Shown one piece after another: positions 21,055 to 30,743 of a stretch of 64,000 nucleotides of DNA. The stretch's first letter is position 1. Each line of letters opens with the position of its first letter. Source of the DNA: Hyphomicrobiales bacterium. Its GTDB lineage: Bacteria; Pseudomonadota; Alphaproteobacteria; Rhizobiales; Rhizobiaceae. Below the pieces are notes generated by a model that was not told the DNA's origin, did not search any database, and was given only the letters and a program-made list of their open reading frames with translations. The stretch covers positions 248,001-312,000 of the forward strand of contig UEIJ01000024.1 of NCBI GenBank assembly GCA_900470195.1, in the 5' to 3' direction. The position numbers and the translations under genes were made by a program.

Positions 21055-22494
21055 ATGAGCGATGGAGCCAAATTGAAAAACCATCACGATATATGGGATA
21101 TCGTCGACGCCAAGAGCGCCGCATATTTCGAACTGAGCGATACGGTTTGGGATAATCCTGAAACAAATTACGAAGAATACAAATCGAGCGATGCCCACGC
21201 TGCAATGCTGGAAGCCGAAGGGTTTCGCGTCGAACGCGGCATTGCAGGGTTGCCAACGGCTGTAATGGGCGAAGCTGGCGAGGATGGTCCGGTCATTGCC
21301 ATTCTTGGTGAGTTCGATGCGCTGCCGGGTTTGAGCCAGGTATCGGGGCTGGTCGAAGAGAAGCCTGTCGAAGCAAGCGGGCACGGACATGGCTGCGGTC
21401 ACAACCTTCTGGGTGCGGGTTCACTGCTCGCGGCTGCCGCCGTAAAGGATTATCTTGCTGCACAGGGCATCAAGGGCCGCGTGCGTTACTATGGTTGCCC
21501 CGCTGAAGAGGGCGGCTCGGCAAAGGGTTTCATGGTTCGCGAGGGGCTGTTCGACGATGTCGATATCGCGTTCTGCTGGCACCCAGCGCCATTCGCGGGC
21601 GTGAACGATCCGGTCTCGCTCGCTTGCAACGAGATCAATTTTCATTTCAGCGGGCGTGCCGCCCACGCTTCATCGGCGCCACATTTGGGACGCAGCGCGC
21701 TCGACGCGGTTGAACTGATGAATGTCGGCGTGAACTATATGCGAGAGCATATGCCCTCGACAGCCCGTATTCACTACGCCGTGACCGATGCGGGCGGTGT
21801 CGCTCCAAATGTCGTGCAGGCCAAGGCAACGGTGCGCTATCTGGTACGCGCCCGCAGCCTGCCGGAAATGCAGGTGCTTGTGGAGCGTGTCAAGAAGATC
21901 GCCCACGGCGCCGCCTTGATGACCGAAACGACGGTTCGCAGCGAGATTATCAGCGGCGATGCCGACCTGATCGGCAATACCCCACTTGAACAGCTGATGC
22001 AGATGCAGCTTGAGCGTCTCGGACCTCCGGACTTTGACGATCAGGACCGCGAAACCGCAAGCCATTTTCAGAAGACGCTCTCGAAGGAAGATATTTCCGA
22101 TGCCTTCCGCCGCTTCGGCGTGGAGCCAAAAGAGGGCTTATCGCTTTGCGAAGGTATCTATACGCCCTATAAGGGCGATAATACTCTCGTCGGCTCCACC
22201 GATGTGGGCAGTGTCAGTTGGGTTGTTCCCACGGTGCAGATGCGCGGTGCGACCTGCGCGATCGGTACGCCGCTTCATTCGTGGCAGATGGTAGCTCAGG
22301 GCAAGCTGCCGGCAGCGCACAAGGGTATGGCCCATGCTGCGAAGATCATGGGCAGCACGGCCATCGAGCTGCTCCGCGATCCTGCGCAGATCGAGAAAGC
22401 AAAGCAGGATCACGCAAAACGGCTCGGCGGAACCGTTTTCGTCAATCCGATTCCGGACAGCGTTCAACCCGCTCTGCCCGAAAGCGCGAAGTAA
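21055..22494 (+). CDS. M20 amidohydrolase, AbgB-like
   Basis: A zinc or manganese amidohydrolase of 479 residues in the p-aminobenzoyl-glutamate hydrolase/aminoacylase group. Metal-ligand motifs are GEFDALPG, GHGHGCGHNLLGAG, PAEEGGSAK and the FHFSGRAAHASSAPHLG dimerisation/substrate region. The family removes an acyl or aryl group from an amino acid or dipeptide. It leads an operon with a polar amino acid importer, so it probably hydrolyses the imported compound, which remains unknown. The start ATG is weakly supported by GGCGGCGGT; no better in-frame start is visible nearby. Confidence 0.87.
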   Translation: MSDGAKLKNHHDIWDIVDAKSAAYFELSDTVWDNPETNYEEYKSSDAHAAMLEAEGFRVERGIAGLPTAVMGEAGEDGPVIAILGEFDALPGLSQVSGLVEEKPVEASGHGHGCGHNLLGAGSLLAAAAVKDYLAAQGIKGRVRYYGCPAEEGGSAKGFMVREGLFDDVDIAFCWHPAPFAGVNDPVSLACNEINFHFSGRAAHASSAPHLGRSALDAVELMNVGVNYMREHMPSTARIHYAVTDAGGVAPNVVQAKATVRYLVRARSLPEMQVLVERVKKIAHGAALMTETTVRSEIISGDADLIGNTPLEQLMQMQLERLGPPDFDDQDRETASHFQKTLSKEDISDAFRRFGVEPKEGLSLCEGIYTPYKGDNTLVGSTDVGSVSWVVPTVQMRGATCAIGTPLHSWQMVAQGKLPAAHKGMAHAAKIMGSTAIELLRDPAQIEKAKQDHAKRLGGTVFVNPIPDSVQPALPESAK

Positions 22495-22567
22495 TGCAGA
22501 CAGGCAGACAGTTTTTGACAATCGAAATGACATTCAACCCCTCTATTCTCACAAGGCCTGGCGCATC

Positions 22568-23290
22568 ATGAAGCAGATGGGCTTTCTCGATATTCTGAGT
22601 TTCGGTCCGGACGGCTGGGGCTATGTGCTGATGATGGGCGCGCTTGTGAGCGTGGCCCTTGCTGTTCTGGGCTTCCTGCTTGGCGCCACCATCGGCGTGT
22701 TTGCCGCCTGGGCGAAGATTTCCGGCAGGCGCACGCTGCGCACCGTCGCCGACGGCTACACCACGATCATTCGAGGCATACCGGACCTTCTCGTCATTTA
22801 TCTGTTCTATTTCGGCGGGAGCGCTGCCGTTACCGCTCTCGGCAAATATTTCGGTGCGGAAGGCTTCATTGGCTTTCCGGGCTTTCTGGCAGGCGTGCTG
22901 GCAATCGGCATTTCCTGCGGTGCGCATCATACCGAAGTGTTCCGCGGCGCATTCCGGGCTGTCTTCAAGGGCGAGATCGAAGCGGCAACCGCCTGCGGCA
23001 TGGGCCGGATGCTGAAATTCCGCCGTATCATCGCGCCGCTCGCGCTGCGGCATGCATTGCCGGGCCTTGGCAATGTCTGGCAGGTTTCGTTGAAAGAATC
23101 CGCGCTGGTGTCCGTTGCCGGCGTGGTCGAGCTTCTGCGTCAGGCCCAGATCGGCGCTGGCTCGACAGGTCTGCCCTTCAACTTCTTCCTCATTGCCGGT
23201 GCGCTCTACCTGCTGATTTCGTCGGTTTCCGGCGGGCTTCTGCAGTTGGCCGAGCGCCACTTCTCGCGCGGCGTCCGGAGGGCAAAATGA
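22568..23290 (+). CDS. Polar amino acid ABC transporter permease (HisQ type)
   Basis: An inner-membrane permease of 240 residues with about five hydrophobic segments. It has the family's IIRGIPDLLVIYLFYF segment and the ATPase-contact loop EAATACGMGRMLKFRRIIAPLA. It overlaps the second permease gene by four bases (ATGA), so the two are co-translated and probably form a heterodimer. The ATG at 22568 comes 73 bases after the amidohydrolase stop. Confidence 0.92.
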   Translation: MKQMGFLDILSFGPDGWGYVLMMGALVSVALAVLGFLLGATIGVFAAWAKISGRRTLRTVADGYTTIIRGIPDLLVIYLFYFGGSAAVTALGKYFGAEGFIGFPGFLAGVLAIGISCGAHHTEVFRGAFRAVFKGEIEAATACGMGRMLKFRRIIAPLALRHALPGLGNVWQVSLKESALVSVAGVVELLRQAQIGAGSTGLPFNFFLIAGALYLLISSVSGGLLQLAERHFSRGVRRAK

Positions 23291-24006
23291 ACCTCGAATT
23301 CTATTCCGATGCATTCTTCCAGATGCTGGGCGGTGTGCCGCTGACGTTGAAGCTTGCGGCAACTTCCATCGTCTTCGGCGCCATTCTGGCGCTGCTTTTT
23401 GCCATGATGCGCCTGTCGGGCGTCAAGGTGCTGGACTGGATTGCCCGCCTTTACGTCTTCGTGTTCCGTGGAACGCCGCTTCTGGTGCAGATATTCATCA
23501 TCTATTACGGTCTCAGCCAGTTTCCGGTCATTCGCTATTCGTTTGTATGGCCCATCCTGCGCGAACCTTATTGGTGTGCGATCATTGCGTTGACATTGAA
23601 CAATGCGGCTTATGCGAGCGAAATCATCCGCGGCGGCCTGCTGTCGGTGCCGCATGGGCAGATCGAAGCCGCGAAAGCCTGTGGCATGTCATCCTTCACC
23701 TGCTTCCGCCGCATCGTCATGCCGCTTGCCATCCGCCAGGCGCTGCCCGGATACGGCAATGAGATGATCTCGATGATCAAGGCAACTTCGCTTGCATCGA
23801 TCATCACGCTCATGGAAGTGACCGGCATCGCGGCAAAGCTGATCGCCGAGAGCTATCGGGCCATAGAAATCTTCGTGATCGCCGGTGCGATCTACCTTGC
23901 CATCAACTTCGTCCTGACACGTGTGCTGATGTTCGCAGAATACAGGCTCACCCCTTATCTGCGCCAGCCGGTCGTCAAGCTTTCCTCCGAGGGACAAACA
24001 TCGTGA
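23287..24006 (+). CDS. Polar amino acid ABC transporter permease (HisM type)
   Basis: The second membrane subunit, 239 residues. It has the motif [16 protein letters not shown] and a contact loop [22 protein letters not shown]. It starts inside the stop of the first permease gene and ends overlapping the GTG start of the ATPase gene, so the three form a tightly coupled block. The family transports histidine, octopine, glutamine or related compounds. Confidence 0.93.
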
Positions 24007-24797
24007 GCAAAATCGTTTCCCCCAATGCACCGGTGGCGCTGAAAGTCGAAAACCTGCGCAAGAGCTTTGGCGCCAACGAAGTGCTGAAGGGCATCTCGCT
24101 CGAAGCGCGCGAGGGCGAGGTCATTTCGATCCTTGGTTCTTCCGGTTCCGGCAAGTCGACCTTCCTGCGCTGCATCAATCTTCTCGAAATTCCAACGTCG
24201 GGCACGGTTACGGTTTCGGGCGAAACCATCCGCATGGCGAAGAATGCGAAGGGTGAAGCCTACCCGACGGACAAGAAGCAGGTTTCGCGCATTCGTTCGG
24301 AACTGGGCATGGTGTTCCAGAGCTTCAATCTGTGGTCCCACAAGACCATTCTGGAAAACATCATCGAGGCGCCGATCTATGTGCAGGGGCGTCCGCGTGC
24401 AGAATGCGTGGCGGAAGCAGAAGCCCTGCTGGCGAAGGTCGGCATTGCCGACAAGCGGGATTTCTATCCGGCCCACCTTTCGGGCGGCCAGCAGCAGCGC
24501 GCCGCGATTGCCCGCGCGCTGGCGATGAAGCCGAAGGTCATGCTGTTCGATGAACCGACCTCGGCACTCGATCCGGAACTGGTCGGTGAAGTGCTGCGCG
24601 TCATGCGCGGACTTGCCGAAGAAGGCCGCACCATGCTGGTGGTGACGCACGAAATGGGTTTCGCGCGCGACGTGTCCAACCGCGTGGTATTTTTCCACCA
24701 GGGACTGGTGGAGGAAGACGGCGCGCCCGAAGACGTGTTCGGCAATTCGAAGTCGGAACGTTTCCGCAAGTTCATCAGCCATGAGAACGCTGCCTAG
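24003..24797 (+). CDS. Polar amino acid ABC transporter ATP-binding protein (HisP/OccP type)
   Basis: A 264-residue ATPase. Motifs are Walker [10 protein letters not shown], a Q-loop [13 protein letters not shown], the signature [15 protein letters not shown], Walker [16 protein letters not shown] and the H-loop VVTHEMGFA. It begins with GTG at 24003, overlapping the permease stop by four bases. The insertion with [17 protein letters not shown] before the Q-loop is characteristic of HisP/OccP proteins that take basic amino acids or opines. Confidence 0.93.
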
Positions 24798-24960
24798 AAC
24801 ATTCCCGGCAAGGCCCGAAAACGGCTTTGCGAAGGGCTGGGCGATAAAATCAGATAGTCAGAGCGGTTCTGATGACCTTCCCTTAGCGGAGCCGCTCCGA
24901 TTTCCAAATTCTGTGTTCCGGCGCCAGCCGGACAGAAACACCCGCAACAGGATAACTGCA
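24798..24960. other. Intercistronic gap with a GAGCGG/CCGCTC inverted repeat
   Basis: 163 bases between the ATPase and binding-protein genes. GAGCGG (24861-24866) and CCGCTC (24892-24897) can pair. The right arm also sits inside a local CGGAG/CTCCG hairpin. Wording such as AGAGCGGTTC resembles the end of the interspersed repeat at 30610-30712. It may be a degraded copy or a transcript-processing site. Confidence 0.4.
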
Positions 24961-25812
24961 ATGAAGACCATCGGACTGTTCAAAGCCGTGTTCATTTCCG
25001 CTCTTGCTCTGACGAGCATTTCGGCTCATGCCGAGGAAAAGAAATGGACAAAGATCACCATCGCCACGGAAGGCGCTTTCCGCCCGTACAACTTCACCAA
25101 GCCCGATGGCTCGCTGGATGGCTATGAAGTCGAACTCTATAAGGACCTCTGCGCCCGCATGAAGGTCGAGTGCACGATGGTTGCGCAGCCTTTCGACAGC
25201 ATCATTCCCGCGCTCAATGCCGGCAAGTTCGATGCGATCATGGCTGGCCTGACGGCAACGCCAAAGCGCGAAGAAACCATCAGCTTCTCGATTTCCTACG
25301 GCCTGACGCCGCAGACCTTCGCAACGCTGAAGGACAGCCCTTACGCAAAGCTGCCCCATACCGGCGAAACCCTTTATCTCGCCAAGGATGAAGCTGCTGC
25401 GCAAAAGGCAATCGATGAAGTATCGGCTGAAATCAAGGGTCGCACCGTCGGCGTTCAGACCGCTTCGCTCGGCCTGACGCTGCTCGACAAATACTTCAAG
25501 GACAATATCGACATCCGCGAATACAAGACCACGGAACAGCATGACCTCGACCTGAAGTCCGGACGTGTTGACCTGATTGTGGCTTCGCTCGCTTACCTCA
25601 CCGACGCTGCCAAGAAGCCGGGCAATGAAGACATTGTCATGACTGGTCCTTTCTTCAAGGGCGGCATTCTGGGCCGTGGCGTTGCCGTCGGCCTGCGCAA
25701 GGACGATACCGAGCTGAAGAAGATGTTCGATGAAGCCATCGAAGCAGCAAAAGCGGACGGCACGATCAAGCGCCTGTCGGAAAAGTGGTTCGGCTTCGAC
25801 GTTACGCCGTAA
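24961..25812 (+). CDS. Polar amino acid ABC transporter substrate-binding protein
   Basis: A periplasmic binding protein of 283 residues in the HisJ/ArgT/OccT family. The signal peptide is MKTIGLFKAVFISALALTSI with a likely cut after SAHA. The mature part has ITIATEGAFRPYNF, DGSLDGYEVELYKDL and PFDSIIPALNAGKFDAIMAG, the classical ligand-binding blocks. An insertion around LYLAKDEAAAQKAID resembles opine/lysine-arginine-ornithine types. It is the last gene of the amidohydrolase operon, separated by 163 bases and followed by a terminator. Confidence 0.92.
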   Translation: MKTIGLFKAVFISALALTSISAHAEEKKWTKITIATEGAFRPYNFTKPDGSLDGYEVELYKDLCARMKVECTMVAQPFDSIIPALNAGKFDAIMAGLTATPKREETISFSISYGLTPQTFATLKDSPYAKLPHTGETLYLAKDEAAAQKAIDEVSAEIKGRTVGVQTASLGLTLLDKYFKDNIDIREYKTTEQHDLDLKSGRVDLIVASLAYLTDAAKKPGNEDIVMTGPFFKGGILGRGVAVGLRKDDTELKKMFDEAIEAAKADGTIKRLSEKWFGFDVTP

Positions 25813-25837
25813 TTTCTGACCTGCATCATATGCAAAG

Positions 25838-25859
25838 CGCCGCCTTCAGGCGGCGTTTT
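25838..25859 (+). terminator. Rho-independent terminator after the amino acid ABC operon
   Basis: CGCCGCC (25838-25844), loop TTCA, GGCGGCG (25849-25855), then TTTTC. It is 25 bases after the binding-protein stop. Confidence 0.9.
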
Positions 25860-25932
25860 CATTTGCGGTTACAAACCTTCACATCAAACCGGTGAACGCT
25901 TATAAGACGCCTGACGTTTGAGTGAGGATGTG

Positions 25933-26454
25933 ATGGTAAAGATCGGTTTCGTGACTGTTTCCGACCGCGCAAGTCGCGGTGAATACGAAGATCTGAGCGG
26001 CCCGGCCATGGAAGCATGGATAAGGAGCGCTGTCGTCACGCCTTATGAAACGATCCGCCGTGTCATTCCCGATGGTATGGAATCTGTACGCGATACGCTT
26101 ATCGATCTTTGCGACAACGAGGCCTGTGATCTCATCCTGACGACGGGCGGCACGGGACCGAGCCAACGTGATGAAACACCGGAAGCCATGCAGGCCGTCC
26201 TGCACAAGGAACTGCCCGGTTTTGGTGAATTGATGCGCCGCGTCAGCCTTGAGCAGACCCCGACCGCCATTCTGTCCCGCCAGACGGCAGGCAGCCGCGG
26301 AAAAAGCTTCATCCTCAATCTTCCCGGCAAGCCCGCTTCGATTGCGATGATCTTGCAGGCGATTTTTCCAGCGGTGCCTTATTGTCTCGATCTCATCGGA
26401 GCAGGGCGTATCGACACCGATCCGGCAGTCGTAAAGGCCCATCGACCGGGCTGA
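25933..26454 (+). CDS. mogA: Molybdopterin adenylyltransferase
   Basis: A 173-residue MoCF_biosynth-domain protein that adenylates molybdopterin before molybdate insertion. It opens VKIGFVTVSDRASRGEYEDLSGP and carries TTGGTGPSQRDETPEAM, the MogA signature, and ILNLPGKPASIAM near the C-terminus. I chose the ATG at 25933 with GTGAGGATGTG upstream; a TTG 15 bases earlier is possible. It is a monocistronic gene unrelated to its neighbours. Confidence 0.93.
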   Translation: MVKIGFVTVSDRASRGEYEDLSGPAMEAWIRSAVVTPYETIRRVIPDGMESVRDTLIDLCDNEACDLILTTGGTGPSQRDETPEAMQAVLHKELPGFGELMRRVSLEQTPTAILSRQTAGSRGKSFILNLPGKPASIAMILQAIFPAVPYCLDLIGAGRIDTDPAVVKAHRPG

Positions 26455-26610
26455 TCTATCGCTGATATTGCATTCGCGTGCGTATTAGATCGCGTTGCGG
26501 AACATTTGTCGCCATGAAGTTACGCAACCCAGCTTTGCGCTTTTGCATGATTTCCATGCTTGCTTTTCCCTGAGTCCGGACTGAATAATAGGGAAAAGAA
26601 GGGGAATTAA

Positions 26611-28023
26611 GTGAAGCCATTCGACGAGATGCTCAACCATGGCGGGAATGTCCGCCAGCCTTACGAATTTCTCAAGCAATGGCTCGACAGCCAAGACCCG
26701 CACAAACTTCTTCAGAAAAGCGATGACGCCGAAAGCGTTTTCCGCAAGACGGGCATCACCTTTGCCGTCTACGGAGATCAGGAGGCGGGCGAGCGCCTTA
26801 TCCCGTTCGACATCATCCCGCGCATTATTTCAGGGCAGGAATGGCGGCGTCTGTCACAGGGCATCGAGCAGCGCGTCATGGCGCTGAACGCCTTTCTCGA
26901 TGATATTTATCACCGGCAGGAGATCGTCCGGGCAGGGCGCATTCCCAAAGAGCTGATTTCCAGAAATGAGGCCTTCCTGCTGGAAATGATCGGTTTCCGT
27001 CCGCCGGGCAATGTTTATACTCATATTATCGGCGTCGATATCGTGCGCACGGCCGAAAACCAGTTCTATGTGCTGGAGGACAATGCCCGCACGCCATCCG
27101 GCGTTTCCTATATGCTGGAAAATCGCGAAACGATGATGCAGCTCTTTCCAGAGCTGTTCCAGAACGTCAAGGTGCGTCCGGTCGAGAATTATCCGCAATT
27201 GCTGCGCCAGTCACTCGCGAGCGTTGCCCCTCCTGGTACGCAGGGTGTGCCGACCGTCGCGGTGCTTACGCCGGGCATCTACAATTCCGCCTATTTCGAA
27301 CATGCATTCCTTGCCGATCAGATGGGCGTCGAACTGGTTGAGGGAAGCGATCTGCGCGTCGTTGATGGACGTGTGGCGATGCGCACGACGCAAGGTTATC
27401 GCGCCATCGATGTGCTCTACCGGCGTGTCGACGATGCTTTTCTCGACCCGCTGACATTCAGGCCGGATTCGACACTTGGTGTTGCCGGTATCATGGATGT
27501 CTACCGGGCCGGAAATATCACGATTGCCAACGCACCGGGAACCGGCATTGCCGATGACAAGGCGATCTATTCCTATATGCCGGAAATCGTGGAGTTTTAT
27601 ACGGGCCGCAAGGCCATTCTCGAAAACGTTCCGACATGGCGCTGTTCCGAACCGGACAGCCTCGCATACGTGCTCGACAATCTTGCCGAGCTTGTCGTCA
27701 AGGAAGTCCACGGCTCGGGCGGCTATGGAATGCTGGTCGGACCGGCTTCGACAAAGGCCGAACGCGATGCTTTCGCCGAAAAATTGAAAGCTAGGCCGCG
27801 CAACTATATCGCGCAGCCCACACTGGCGCTTTCAACGACGCCCATCTTCACCAAGAGCGGGCTGGCGCCGCGCCATGTCGATCTGCGTCCCTTTGTTCTG
27901 GTCTCGGATCGCATCCGCATCACGCCCGGCGGACTTACGCGCGTGGCTTTGAAGGAGGGATCGCTCGTCGTGAATTCCAGCCAGGGCGGCGGAACCAAGG
28001 ACACGTGGGTACTCGACGACTGA
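26611..28023 (+). CDS. Circularly permuted type 2 ATP-grasp protein (Anbu system)
   Basis: A 470-residue cytoplasmic protein of the circularly permuted ATP-grasp type 2 family (former DUF404/407). ATP-grasp folds ligate a carboxylate to an amine or thiol using ATP. Conserved blocks include IPFDIIPRIISGQEW, QFYVLEDNARTPSGVSYMLENR and KEVHGSGGYGMLVGP near residue 370. The glycine-rich part lies late in the sequence, as expected after permutation. The start is a GTG at 26611 with AAGGGGAA upstream. It is the first of four co-directional genes that recur together with Anbu. The reaction substrate is not known, and a peptide-forming or peptide-tagging role has been proposed for the set. Confidence 0.9.
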   Translation: MKPFDEMLNHGGNVRQPYEFLKQWLDSQDPHKLLQKSDDAESVFRKTGITFAVYGDQEAGERLIPFDIIPRIISGQEWRRLSQGIEQRVMALNAFLDDIYHRQEIVRAGRIPKELISRNEAFLLEMIGFRPPGNVYTHIIGVDIVRTAENQFYVLEDNARTPSGVSYMLENRETMMQLFPELFQNVKVRPVENYPQLLRQSLASVAPPGTQGVPTVAVLTPGIYNSAYFEHAFLADQMGVELVEGSDLRVVDGRVAMRTTQGYRAIDVLYRRVDDAFLDPLTFRPDSTLGVAGIMDVYRAGNITIANAPGTGIADDKAIYSYMPEIVEFYTGRKAILENVPTWRCSEPDSLAYVLDNLAELVVKEVHGSGGYGMLVGPASTKAERDAFAEKLKARPRNYIAQPTLALSTTPIFTKSGLAPRHVDLRPFVLVSDRIRITPGGLTRVALKEGSLVVNSSQGGGTKDTWVLDD

Positions 28024-28085
28024 AACAACTGGATTGACGTGCTGCAACTGACGAAAAGATCAGGGCGCGAAAAGGGGAATGATTT

Positions 28086-29027
28086 ATGCTTCTTGGCCGT
28101 ACGGCAAACGGACTTTACTGGATGTTCCGCTACATCGAGCGCGCCGAAAACATGGCGCGCCTTGTCGATGCTGGGCTTCGCATGGCATTGACGAAAACCT
28201 CAGATGCACCCGAAGAATGGTCATCGGTTGCGGTTTCGGCGGGTGCAAGCCAGGGTTTTTCCGCAAAATATGATGTCTATAACGCCGCCAATGTCGCCGA
28301 TTTTCTGCTGCGGGATGCGGACAATCCATCAAGCGTGATGACATGCTTTGAAACCGCCCGTTCCAATGCCCGCATGGTGCGCACGGCACTGACGCGTGAG
28401 GCGTGGGAAAGCGTCAACGAAGCATGGATGTCGCTGAAAAAATCACTGTGCAAGCCGTTGAAGGAAAGCGATCTTCCGCAACTTCTCGACCAGATAAAGC
28501 GGGAGACGGCGCTCATTCGCGGCGCCTTTCACGGCACGATGCTGCGCAACGAAATTTTTGATTTCGCAAGCCTCGGTACGTTCATCGAACGCGCCGACAA
28601 CACGGCCCGCATTCTCGATGTGAAATATTATGTTCTGTTGCCCGCCATTTCCTATGTCGGCACGACGCTGGACAACTACCAATGGGAGTCCATTCTCCGC
28701 TCTGTTTCGGCGCATCGTTCCTATCGGTGGGTCTATGATGGTGACTATCGTCCAGCGCAGGTCGCTGACTATCTGATCCTCAACGGCCGCATGCCACGGT
28801 CGCTTCATTATTGCTATCGCAGCATCGCTGAACATCTGGATTACCTGTCCAAAGATTATGACAATCGCGCGACCTGCCACGAGACAGCGGACAAAATCTA
28901 TGCGAGCCTGCAAAATCAGGACATATCTGCGATCTTCGATATGGGCCTGCATGAATTCCTGACCGAATTCATCACCCGCAACAACCGGCTCGGCAACGAG
29001 ATCGCTGAAACCTATAATTTCAATTGA
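28086..29027 (+). CDS. Alpha-E domain protein (Anbu system)
   Basis: A 313-residue all-helical protein of the alpha-E family (former DUF403). It opens MLLGRTANGLYWMFRYIERAENMARLVDAG, typical of the family, and continues with helices such as FIERADNTARILDVKYY near the middle, with PRSLHYCYRSIAEHL further on. It has no membrane segment. AAGGGGAATGATTT precedes the ATG. It is 62 bases downstream of the ATP-grasp gene and always neighbours it in such operons, so a complex with the ATP-grasp protein is likely, though its activity is unknown. Confidence 0.9.
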   Translation: MLLGRTANGLYWMFRYIERAENMARLVDAGLRMALTKTSDAPEEWSSVAVSAGASQGFSAKYDVYNAANVADFLLRDADNPSSVMTCFETARSNARMVRTALTREAWESVNEAWMSLKKSLCKPLKESDLPQLLDQIKRETALIRGAFHGTMLRNEIFDFASLGTFIERADNTARILDVKYYVLLPAISYVGTTLDNYQWESILRSVSAHRSYRWVYDGDYRPAQVADYLILNGRMPRSLHYCYRSIAEHLDYLSKDYDNRATCHETADKIYASLQNQDISAIFDMGLHEFLTEFITRNNRLGNEIAETYNFN

Positions 29028-29036
29028 GGTCTTCGC

Positions 29037-29834
29037 TTGCTGCTCAATATCCGGCACGTTTCGCATTATCGCTATGAGCATCCGGTTCCCTATGCCGTGC
29101 AAAGGTTGCGGTTGCGTCCGCCAACGGTGCCCGGTCAGATGGTCAAGCATTGGGAGCTGAAAATCGAAGGCGGCGAGCCGGAGGTTTCCTATGTCGACGG
29201 TTTTGGCAACAAGACCGACCTTGTCCAGCACGCACGAAACGTCAGCGAGATCATCATAACCGCCAACGGCAGCATCGACGTGGAAGACAGAGCCGGTGTG
29301 CTTGGGCCTGTCTATGGCTTTGCGCCGCTATGGCTTTTTCAGCGTGAGACGCCGCTGACGATGCCGGGCGAGCGCATCAAGGCTCTGGCTGGCGATCTCG
29401 AGACCGGGCAGGAACGGCTTGCCCTGACGCACGATCTGATGAACGCCATACACAAGGCAGTCGCCTATATGCCCGGAACGACGAGTGTTTCCACGGATGC
29501 CGAACACGCACTGGAATCCGGCAAAGGCGTCTGCCAGGACCATACCCATATCTTTCTGTCGGCGGCTCGGCTGTTAGGCGTACCGGCACGGTATGTCTCT
29601 GGATATCTGATGATGGAAGGCGTCGAGGAACAGACCGCAAGCCATGCATGGGCGGAAGCTCATATCGATGGCCTTGGATGGGTCGGGTTCGATGCCGCCA
29701 ACAATATCTGCCCGAACGACCGCTATGTGCGGATTGCAACCGGGCTCGACTACCGCGACGCAGCGCCGATTTCGGGCGTGCGGCTCGGCAGTGCTATGGA
29801 AAGCCTTGCGGTTCACATCAATGTAGGGCAGTGA
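29037..29834 (+). CDS. Transglutaminase-like cysteine peptidase (Anbu system)
   Basis: A 265-residue protein with an N-terminal bacterial transglutaminase-like domain (LLNIRHVSHYRYEHPVP) and a catalytic transglutaminase core. The catalytic cysteine lies in SGKGVCQDHTHIF, the histidine in TASHAWAEAHIDG and the aspartate in GFDAANN. Members act as peptidases or amide-bond transferases. The start is a TTG at 29037 preceded by TTGAGG, nine bases after the alpha-E stop; no ATG serves. It has no signal peptide. It is the third gene of the operon. Confidence 0.9.
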   Translation: MLLNIRHVSHYRYEHPVPYAVQRLRLRPPTVPGQMVKHWELKIEGGEPEVSYVDGFGNKTDLVQHARNVSEIIITANGSIDVEDRAGVLGPVYGFAPLWLFQRETPLTMPGERIKALAGDLETGQERLALTHDLMNAIHKAVAYMPGTTSVSTDAEHALESGKGVCQDHTHIFLSAARLLGVPARYVSGYLMMEGVEEQTASHAWAEAHIDGLGWVGFDAANNICPNDRYVRIATGLDYRDAAPISGVRLGSAMESLAVHINVGQ

Positions 29835-29870
29835 TCCTCTGGATAGCCTGTTGCCTGCCGGATATTGCTC

Positions 29871-30611
29871 ATGACCTATTGCGTTGGAATGAAAATCGAT
29901 CGTGGCCTTGTGTTCATGTCCGATACGCGGACGAATGCCGGGCTCGACAATATCTCCGTCTTCCCGAAGATGCGAAGCTGGTCCAAGCCGGGTGAACGGG
30001 TGATTGTTCTGCTTTCAGCAGGCAATCTCGCGACAACACAAGCTGTGGCAAGTCTTCTGGAAGAACGCATGAAGGCTCCGGCAGACAGACACCCGTCGGT
30101 CTTCGATGCGCCCTCCATGTTTCAGGTCGCACGTCTTGTCGGCGATACGGTCAAGGAAGTGATCCAGAACTCCGCAACCGGAGGTCAGAACGCCGATGCC
30201 TTTGGCGCTTCGTTCATTCTCGGCGGGCAGATCAAGGGCGGGCAACCGCGCCTTTTCTATATCTACCCGGAAGGCAACTTCATCGAGAGTTCAGCAGACA
30301 CGCCCTTCTTCCAGATTGGCGAAAACAAGTACGGCAAACCCATCCTCGTCCGCGCCTATCAAAAGGAGATGAGCTTCGAGGAGACGGTGAAGCTGTTGCT
30401 CGTCTCGTTCGACTCCACACTGAAAGCCAATCTTTCGGTGGGGCTGCCGCTCGACATGCAGATCTATGAAGCCGACAGTTTCGAGCCCGGAACACGCAAG
30501 CGGTTCGAGGCTACCGATCCGTATTATCAAACCGTATCGGAAAGCTGGTCGGAAGCGCTGAAATCGGCGCTGGAGCAATTGCCGCCTTTCAGCTTCGAGG
30601 ACGGAAGTTAG
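29871..30611 (+). CDS. Anbu proteasome-like Ntn hydrolase
   Basis: A 246-residue peptidase related to proteasome beta subunits and HslV, known as Anbu. After removal of the initiator Met the sequence starts T-Y-C-V-G, so the catalytic threonine is exposed without a propeptide. D17 (MSDTRT) and K32 (FPKMR) match the active-site Asp and Lys. GLDNISVF, SAGNLATTQAV and GGQIKGGQPRLFYIYPEGNF are family blocks. I chose the ATG at 29871; the ATG two codons upstream (29865) would bury Thr. It forms open rings in characterised homologues. The dedicated unfoldase and substrate are unknown. Its stop codon TAG merges with the adjoining repeat element. Confidence 0.93.
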   Translation: MTYCVGMKIDRGLVFMSDTRTNAGLDNISVFPKMRSWSKPGERVIVLLSAGNLATTQAVASLLEERMKAPADRHPSVFDAPSMFQVARLVGDTVKEVIQNSATGGQNADAFGASFILGGQIKGGQPRLFYIYPEGNFIESSADTPFFQIGENKYGKPILVRAYQKEMSFEETVKLLLVSFDSTLKANLSVGLPLDMQIYEADSFEPGTRKRFEATDPYYQTVSESWSEALKSALEQLPPFSFEDGS

Positions 30612-30712: not shown

Positions 30713-30743
30713 AAAAAAGGCCGGGCAAAGCGCCCGGCCTTTT
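30713..30743. terminator. Bidirectional rho-independent terminator
   Basis: AAAAAA, then GGCCGGGC (30719-30726), loop AAAGC, GCCCGGCC (30732-30739), TTTT. It serves both the Anbu operon and the convergent binding-protein gene. Confidence 0.92.

What the first reader, a model, noticed from the sequence alone, without database searches (positions are those of the whole stretch)
26611..30611. Four-gene Anbu system: ATP-grasp, alpha-E, transglutaminase-like and proteasome-like hydrolase
All four partners are present in order with short gaps and all catalytic residues visible (Anbu Thr after the start Met, D17, K32; transglutaminase Cys-His-Asp). The set recurs in bacteria and is known from genome comparison, but its substrates and product remain undefined. 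An ATP-dependent ligase next to two peptidases suggests synthesis and breakdown of a peptide or a protein tag. No ATPase unfoldase is encoded here, unlike proteasome or HslUV.
Basis: partly seen in the sequence, partly recalled or inferred. Interest (0 to 1): 0.75.

Follow-up and report, generated by a model that had tools for sequence, protein, structure and literature searches.

The report
Anbu proteasome-like operon with ATP-grasp ligase
This stretch holds a known but still unexplained four-gene bacterial cassette, an ATP-using bond-making enzyme with its helper protein and two bond-cutting enzymes, one of them a simple cousin of the proteasome; in relatives the bond-making pair is the constant part and the proteasome cousin an optional add-on that hardly ever occurs without it.

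Summary
[quoted passage not shown] This is the published Anbu operon, here in a Brucella/Ochrobactrum-type genome. The 'ligase plus hydrolases' idea was already in print and remains unproven; a published pull-down found no interaction among the Yersinia products. Added here: (1) dependence is one-sided: 53 of 54 (class) and 142 of 145 (phylum) genomes with Anbu also have Alpha-E, whereas of 30 genomes searched whose operon lacks Anbu, 28 have none anywhere. (2) Anbu-2 genomes split the set: the ligase-Alpha-E pair is followed by the N-degron enzyme arginyltransferase (bpt) in 9 of 11, and Anbu-2 lies under 2 kb from clpS-clpA in 7 of 11; probably one clade, so a lead only. (3) Fused ligase-Alpha-E paralogues have lost ligase residues invariant elsewhere. 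(4) Alpha-E is an internal duplication. (5) Sigma-54 promoter matches occur upstream in a minority of relatives, not here. Best reading: a ligase-hydrolase module with Anbu as optional downstream hydrolase.

The parts
26611..28023 (+). ATP-grasp ligase gene (circularly permuted, PF14403/PF04174), GTG start, 470 aa
   Evidence: Pfam 559.7 bits; PDB 3n6x E 5.3e-190; candidate ATP/metal residues K364, G370, G371, D424, N455 identical in all 183 stand-alone relatives aligned; single CP_ATPgrasp_2 match in the genome
28086..29027 (+). Alpha-E gene (PF04168), 313 aa; two similar halves, each with an ER motif (E18-R19, E168-R169)
   Evidence: Pfam 329.4 bits; halves align with probability 99.6%, E 7.5e-24; AlphaFold2 model mean pLDDT 88.3, pTM 0.89, all helical; single match in the genome
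29037..29834 (+). Transglutaminase-like gene (PF08379 + PF01841), TTG start, C166-H203-D219
   Evidence: Pfam; H203 and D219 in 144 of 144, C166 in 132 of 144 aligned; single PF08379 match in the genome
29871..30611 (+). Anbu gene, ATG start at 29871, Thr1-Asp17-Lys32, Anbu-1 type
   Evidence: PDB Anbu chains E 9.2e-87 to 6.4e-64; T1, D17, K32 in 118 of 118 aligned
26558..26589 (+). Conserved upstream block GCTTGCTTTT ... TGAATAAT before the ligase start, promoter candidate of unknown type
   Evidence: Partly conserved in near relatives; no sigma-54 match above threshold and no sigma-70 consensus match here

Best explanation
A conditional ligase-hydrolase module. The ATP-grasp protein and Alpha-E act as an obligate pair that uses ATP to form an amide or peptide bond on a peptide or protein; Alpha-E, a two-fold internal repeat with nearly invariant Arg, Glu and Trp residues, supplies a substrate site. 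The transglutaminase-like protein and Anbu act on the product: Anbu, a threonine Ntn-hydrolase, is an optional downstream hydrolase that trims, removes or breaks down what the pair makes, which would explain why it does not cut ordinary proteasome substrates. In at least two bacteria such genes are switched on by nitrogen limitation. Shown here: gene identity, conserved residues, one-sided co-occurrence, internal repeat. Shown by others for relatives: phosphate release from ATP by the Yersinia ATP-grasp, induction under nitrogen limitation. Inferred: that the pair is one enzyme, the product, the order of steps, the role of Alpha-E, and any nitrogen control in this host.
For: Candidate ligase residues are the constant part (183 of 183). 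An ATP-grasp gene lies directly upstream of stand-alone Alpha-E in 185 of 187 cases in the regions fetched: 68 of 68 class, 78 of 80 named, 39 of 39 phylum (one of the two misses is a contig end, L151, the other, L180, was not examined); the two are fused in paralogues. Anbu hardly occurs without Alpha-E (53 of 54; 142 of 145), even where the genes are unlinked, but Alpha-E genomes often lack Anbu (17 of 70 and 70 of 212, same calls; 28 of 30 searched genomes). Anbu catalytic residues 118 of 118. Anbu does not stand in for HslUV: 53 of 54 Anbu genomes have HslU above cut-off. Fused paralogues lost ligase residues (D424, N455: 0 of 35); the upstream gene in the one such cluster scanned carries DUF2126, a putative amidoligase, so that cluster may keep an active ligase. 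Published passages: ATP-grasp releases phosphate; P. putida PP_2685-2688 genes up under nitrogen limitation; the ligase, Alpha-E and transglutaminase genes NtrC/sigma-54 dependent in B. cenocepacia.
Against: No product or substrate is known. The published pull-down with Anbu as bait found no partner, Anbu did not stimulate ATP use by the ATP-grasp, and no peptidase activity was found. Fuchs et al. argue from the ring structure for protein degradation and call a peptide-synthesis role less likely. In the P. putida RNA-seq the Anbu gene PP_2685 itself changed 1.12-fold in the wild type, unlike its three neighbours. Three genomes of one genus (G300, G502, G588) have Anbu and no Alpha-E hit; T1/D17/K32 are intact in the two I read. 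The co-occurrence counts are not corrected for descent or genome size, and 13 of the genomes with either gene are in both draws. No sigma-54 site above threshold lies upstream of this operon. The Alpha-E fold gave no informative structural match.
Confidence: 0.45

Rival explanations
1. Small-molecule version: the ligase pair makes a dedicated small peptide (for instance a reserve or signalling peptide) and the two hydrolases mobilise it when nitrogen is short; no protein is tagged.
For: ATP-grasp enzymes often make small peptides (established knowledge of the family); nitrogen-limitation induction; Bact_transglu_N and DUF403/404/407 associate with urea-metabolism domains in marine metagenomes (PMC3597751 passage).
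Against: A ring-forming proteasome relative is an unusual hydrolase for a small peptide (inference); in most Anbu-2 genomes of the class the separated parts lie beside protein-degradation genes.
Confidence: 0.3
2. Anbu is a general protease raising protein turnover in nitrogen starvation, and the other three genes are separate functions that share a promoter.
For: View of Fuchs et al. 2017 from the ring structure and binding of proteasome inhibitors (passages); no interaction found in pull-down.
Against: Anbu depends on Alpha-E in gene content even when unlinked; no activity under the conditions tried, casein among the substrates (passage).
Confidence: 0.15
3. N-degron branch: the ligase-Alpha-E pair and Anbu feed on, or tag for, the ClpS-ClpA/Bpt protein-degradation pathway, at least in Anbu-2 lineages.
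For: Tandem ligase-Alpha-E-bpt in 9 of 11 Anbu-2 genomes and in none of the regions fetched for the other 59 Alpha-E genomes of the class; one bpt product scanned, of L118, scores 297 bits for NF002343 arginyltransferase, cut-off 267; Anbu-2 under 2 kb from clpS, with clpA next, in 7 of 11.
Against: Only one independent pair on well-supported branches, so a single ancestral arrangement could explain it; clpS-clpA is divergently transcribed from Anbu-2; 0 of 80 named and 0 of 39 phylum regions show either neighbour; the window genome has bpt and clpS on other contigs.
Confidence: 0.1

Closest known systems
Anbu operon as described for Yersinia bercovieri and others (Anbu-1 type; COG3484 with ATP-grasp, Alpha-E and transglutaminase)
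   Same: Same four families and order; same Thr1-Asp17-Lys32; three of the five published Anbu-1 S1-pocket residues (T20, F30, L52) are identical here by position
   Different: Position 48 is Ser and 55 is Thr here instead of Thr and Ser; no sigma-54 promoter match above threshold upstream here; nitrogen induction is reported for P. putida, not for this host
HslUV and 20S proteasome
   Same: Proteasome-like Ntn-hydrolase family and catalytic residues
   Different: No AAA+ unfoldase gene in the operon; the genome has a separate HslU
DUF2126 / fused ATP-grasp-Alpha-E / transglutaminase clusters
   Same: Same domain families; of 26 class genomes with the fusion, 23 also have a stand-alone Alpha-E
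   Different: Ligase half of the fusion has lost D424, N455 and most of the Gly-rich loop (35 aligned); DUF2126 in the one cluster examined; no Anbu in most of these regions, but an Anbu gene lies beside such clusters in L236, L254, L255 and L268

Membership tests
Anbu operon (Anbu-1 type) | Anbu protein related to solved Anbu structures | tested here: met
   5loy E 9.2e-87, 5nyj 3.5e-82, 5nyf 1.3e-81, 5nyw 1.1e-70, 5lox 6.4e-64
Anbu operon (Anbu-1 type) | Thr directly after initiator Met, Asp17, Lys32(33) | tested here: met
   Window residues T1, D17, K32 with ATG 29871; conserved in 118 of 118 aligned, 57 and 58 of 58, the one departure being a fragment (L079)
Anbu operon (Anbu-1 type) | Order ATP-grasp, Alpha-E, transglutaminase, Anbu on one strand | tested here: met
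Anbu operon (Anbu-1 type) | Anbu-1 S1 pocket T20, F30, T48, L52, S55 (PMC5666114 passage) | tested here: inconclusive
   Window has T20, F30, S48, L52, T55, counted by position: three identical, two conservative changes (sequence; passage)
Anbu operon (Anbu-1 type) | Split-ring dodecamer with C-terminal helix H5 | not testable with these tools
   No assembly prediction was made
HslUV / proteasome | Dedicated AAA+ unfoldase encoded with the peptidase | tested here: not met
   None among the four genes or six neighbours scanned with Pfam and NCBIfam; HslU lies on contig C58 of the same genome
ATP-grasp amidoligase | Conserved ATP/metal residues | tested here: met
   K364, G370, G371, D424, N455 in 183 of 183 stand-alone relatives; their roles are recalled from the general family, not from a ligand-bound structure
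Transglutaminase-like hydrolase | Cys-His-Asp triad | tested here: met
   C166, H203, D219 in the window; across 144 aligned: 132, 144, 144
NtrC/sigma-54 nitrogen regulon | -24/-12 promoter upstream | tested here: not met
   Best score in the window 11.9 of 15.9, hand-set threshold 13.7; 21 of 146 upstream regions pass against a shuffled mean of 5.5

The most novel reading that the evidence does not exclude
[quoted passage not shown] in Anbu-2 lineages ClpA would be its missing unfoldase.
Probability: 0.1. Interest if true: 0.85.

Novelty: new member of a known kind. Interest (0 to 1): 0.45.

Why it matters
Anbu was named in 2008 as a possible proteasome ancestor and still has no known substrate, partner or activity in the passages I could read. 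The one-sided dependence found here says where to look: for something made by the ATP-grasp-Alpha-E pair that accumulates when Anbu is missing. The bpt and clpS-clpA neighbours in Anbu-2 genomes give a concrete protein-degradation pathway to test, and the degenerate fused paralogues warn that family names alone do not show an active ligase.

Tried and rejected
Sigma-54 control of this operon: not supported for the window, which has no match above threshold; good matches exist in some relatives, including Burkholderia loci L172, L174-L177, L182 and L184. The weights and threshold were set by hand and ligase starts were approximate. Sigma-70 consensus: no match upstream.

Viral contigs: 83 pattern matches, none a relative of Alpha-E.

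Independence of the bpt linkage: on a careful tree only one pair of rows on supported branches is independent, so no significance can be claimed. Rows L105 (contig end) and L261 (Anbu state not searched there) were left out of that test. Neighbours of the unlinked transglutaminase in four Anbu-2 genomes showed no recognised degradation gene by eye or by the seven profiles used; they were not scanned with Pfam.

A conserved fifth partner: apart from bpt and clpS-clpA, the recurrent neighbours looked by eye like syntenic genes of other pathways; only a few were scanned.

Caveats on counts: the crosstabs were typed by hand from tool tables. One search ended with an error after printing the rows used here; its row for L096 missed bpt, which one search recovered. 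Many genomes in the 190-genome set are incomplete; G147, the single class exception, has its transglutaminase-Anbu locus at a contig end. The 183 stand-alone and 35 fused ligases were picked by score and length and include near relatives.
Full report
What is there. The window carries four genes on the + strand: ATP-grasp 26611-28023, Alpha-E 28086-29027, transglutaminase-like 29037-29834 and Anbu 29871-30611. The Anbu start is best read as ATG 29871, which puts Thr right after Met, with Asp17 and Lys32 in place. Pfam and PDB searches agree on the families; NCBIfam has no model for the first three and places Anbu near proteasome subunits below their cut-offs. Alpha-E has no informative PDB sequence match (two chains at E 0.16). 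The genome shows one match each for Alpha-E, CP_ATPgrasp_2 and Bact_transglu_N and a separate HslU. The nearest named Alpha-E, 97% identical, is in Brucella tritici, so the host is a Brucella/Ochrobactrum-type bacterium.

What is already known. The operon was described by genome comparison; passages of PMC6376114 and PMC5666114 credit Valas and Bourne 2008 and Iyer et al. 2009, and I could not read the latter. Those two papers report a split-ring or lock-washer Anbu and no peptidase activity with the substrates tried; PMC6376114 also reports no specific interaction with the other operon products in a pull-down with Yersinia Anbu as bait, and phosphate release from ATP by the Yersinia ATP-grasp (passages). 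PMC8665760 (passages) still gives no function in 2021. In P. putida, genes of PP_2685-2688 rise under nitrogen limitation (passages of PMC7801951 and PMC3325844); in the first, the proteasome-like PP_2685 itself changed only 1.12-fold in the wild type, in the second 11.1-fold. In Burkholderia cenocepacia the DUF404/407, DUF403, transglutaminase and large transglutaminase genes are in the NtrC and sigma-54 set (passages of PMC5491218). A 2025 sigma-54 survey names COG3484 in a cluster enriched in Proteobacteria (passage of PMC12316311).

How fixed the set is. In 190 genomes of the class, 54 have Anbu. Of 57 relatives' Anbu genes, 25 lie in the full four-gene order, 7 in ATP-grasp-Alpha-E-Anbu without the transglutaminase between, 1 is divergent beside the other three, 1 is about 8 kb away from them (L065, seen in full as L091), 3 lie beside a transglutaminase gene only, 2 are at contig ends and 18 have none of the partners within the fetched region, except for a short transglutaminase-like piece in L070. 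Of 80 named loci, 38 hold Anbu and 42 do not. I searched the genomes or records of 30 of those 42: 28 have no Anbu and 2 have it elsewhere. Another 39 regions, picked from the 212 phylum genomes with Alpha-E, 31 of them outside the class, gave 14 plain four-gene sets and other arrangements. An ATP-grasp gene lies directly upstream of stand-alone Alpha-E in 68 of 68 class, 78 of 80 named and 39 of 39 phylum cases.

One-sided dependence. Anbu and Alpha-E co-occur in 53 of 54 Anbu genomes of the class, Alpha-E being in 70 of 190. In 398 genomes of the phylum, 142 of 145 Anbu genomes have Alpha-E, which is in 212; without the genomes shared with the class draw it is 131 of 134. The three exceptions are one genus; in the two I read, a lone Anbu has intact T1, D17, K32. 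Alpha-E without Anbu is common: 17 and 70 genomes. Fisher values (8e-31, 2e-49) ignore descent and genome size. HslU is above cut-off in 53 of 54 Anbu genomes, so Anbu does not stand in for HslUV.

What varies and what does not. In 183 stand-alone ATP-grasps K364, G370, G371, D424 and N455 are invariant; in 35 fused ATP-grasp-Alpha-E proteins D424, N455 and H422 are present in none and K317 in one. Of 26 class genomes with such a fusion, 23 also have a stand-alone Alpha-E; the other three are 74-84% complete. The large gene beside one fusion carries DUF2126, a putative amidoligase, with transglutaminase domains. Transglutaminase Cys166 is replaced in 12 of 144, nine of them by Ser. Anbu T1, D17, K32 are kept in 118 of 118. 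Alpha-E residues conserved in at least 97% of 186 sequences include L3, A7, W12, R15, E18, R19, R25 and, in the second half, G164, E168, R169, R175. Its halves align at probability 99.6%, E 7.5e-24, and the model is all helical with mean pLDDT 88.3. Roles of individual ligase residues are recalled from the general ATP-grasp family.

Anbu-2 genomes. Eleven class genomes carry the other subtype (motif like ADGRITAG; of the published Anbu-2 pocket residues I20 and A29, nine have I20 and ten A29 by position), not linked to the ligase pair within the fetched regions. In nine of them the pair is followed on the same strand by arginyltransferase bpt; in one, contig ends prevent a verdict (G112), and one lacks it (G035). 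No region fetched for the other 59 Alpha-E genomes shows this; in G012 bpt is close but convergent. Anbu-2 lies under 2 kb from clpS, with clpA next, divergently transcribed, in seven of eleven, and no other Anbu region of the class shows it. The nine tandem bpt rows fall within one well-supported 22-row ligase clade; the careful tree allows only one independent comparison. None of the 80 named or 39 phylum regions shows either neighbour. I therefore hold this as a lead. In the first 15 of 44 papers listed by a search for Anbu, HslV, ClpS and N-end-rule terms, none holds the word Anbu.

Regulation. Scored against a recalled sigma-54 consensus, 21 of 146 upstream regions pass, against a shuffled mean of 5.5 and 4 on the reverse strand. 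The window does not pass. Its near relatives share a block like GCTTGCTTTT ... TGAATAAT at 26558-26589, which matches no sigma-70 consensus site by the simple scan.

Conclusion. This is an ordinary member of a known, unexplained system. The evidence favours a ligase pair whose product Anbu acts on, over a stand-alone protease that merely shares a promoter, but the product is unknown and the pull-down result in print is against a stable complex.

Noticed in passing
Fusion genes in L097, L106, L113, L123-L125, L127-L130, L132-L140, L142-L148 (class, 26 loci) and L172, L174-L177, L182: ATP-grasp-Alpha-E fusion proteins; in the 35 of all regions that passed the length and score filter the ligase half lacks residues invariant in stand-alone copies, so they look like inactive paralogues kept beside an active pair.
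   Followed up: partly
L172, L174-L177, L182, L184, L258, L092: Transglutaminase-like protein with Ser in place of the catalytic Cys, His and Asp kept.
   Followed up: partly
L275 4249-4998, L276 3450-4199: Anbu with intact catalytic residues in a genus without any Alpha-E hit (G300, G502, G588), the only exceptions to the co-occurrence rule in the phylum set.
   Followed up: partly
L258 7190-8587: ATP-grasp of a genome outside the class that is 85% identical to the window's and its nearest row in the tree; with Burkholderiales loci L154 and L158 (Alpha-E 73 and 72%) it suggests transfer between Rhizobiales and Burkholderiales.
   Followed up: no
window 21055-26454: M20-type amidohydrolase gene, then what reads by eye as amino-acid ABC permeases and ATPase, a binding protein scored near lysine/arginine/ornithine types, and a molybdopterin adenylyltransferase gene just upstream of the operon on the same strand.
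   Followed up: partly
L187 8509-9859 and L188 5226-6000: ATP-grasp found in two pieces and transglutaminase in three pieces: possibly broken genes or sequencing errors.
   Followed up: no
window 30719-30739: GC-rich hairpin followed by four T just after Anbu, a possible terminator between convergent genes; not reported by the scan, which needs five T.
   Followed up: no
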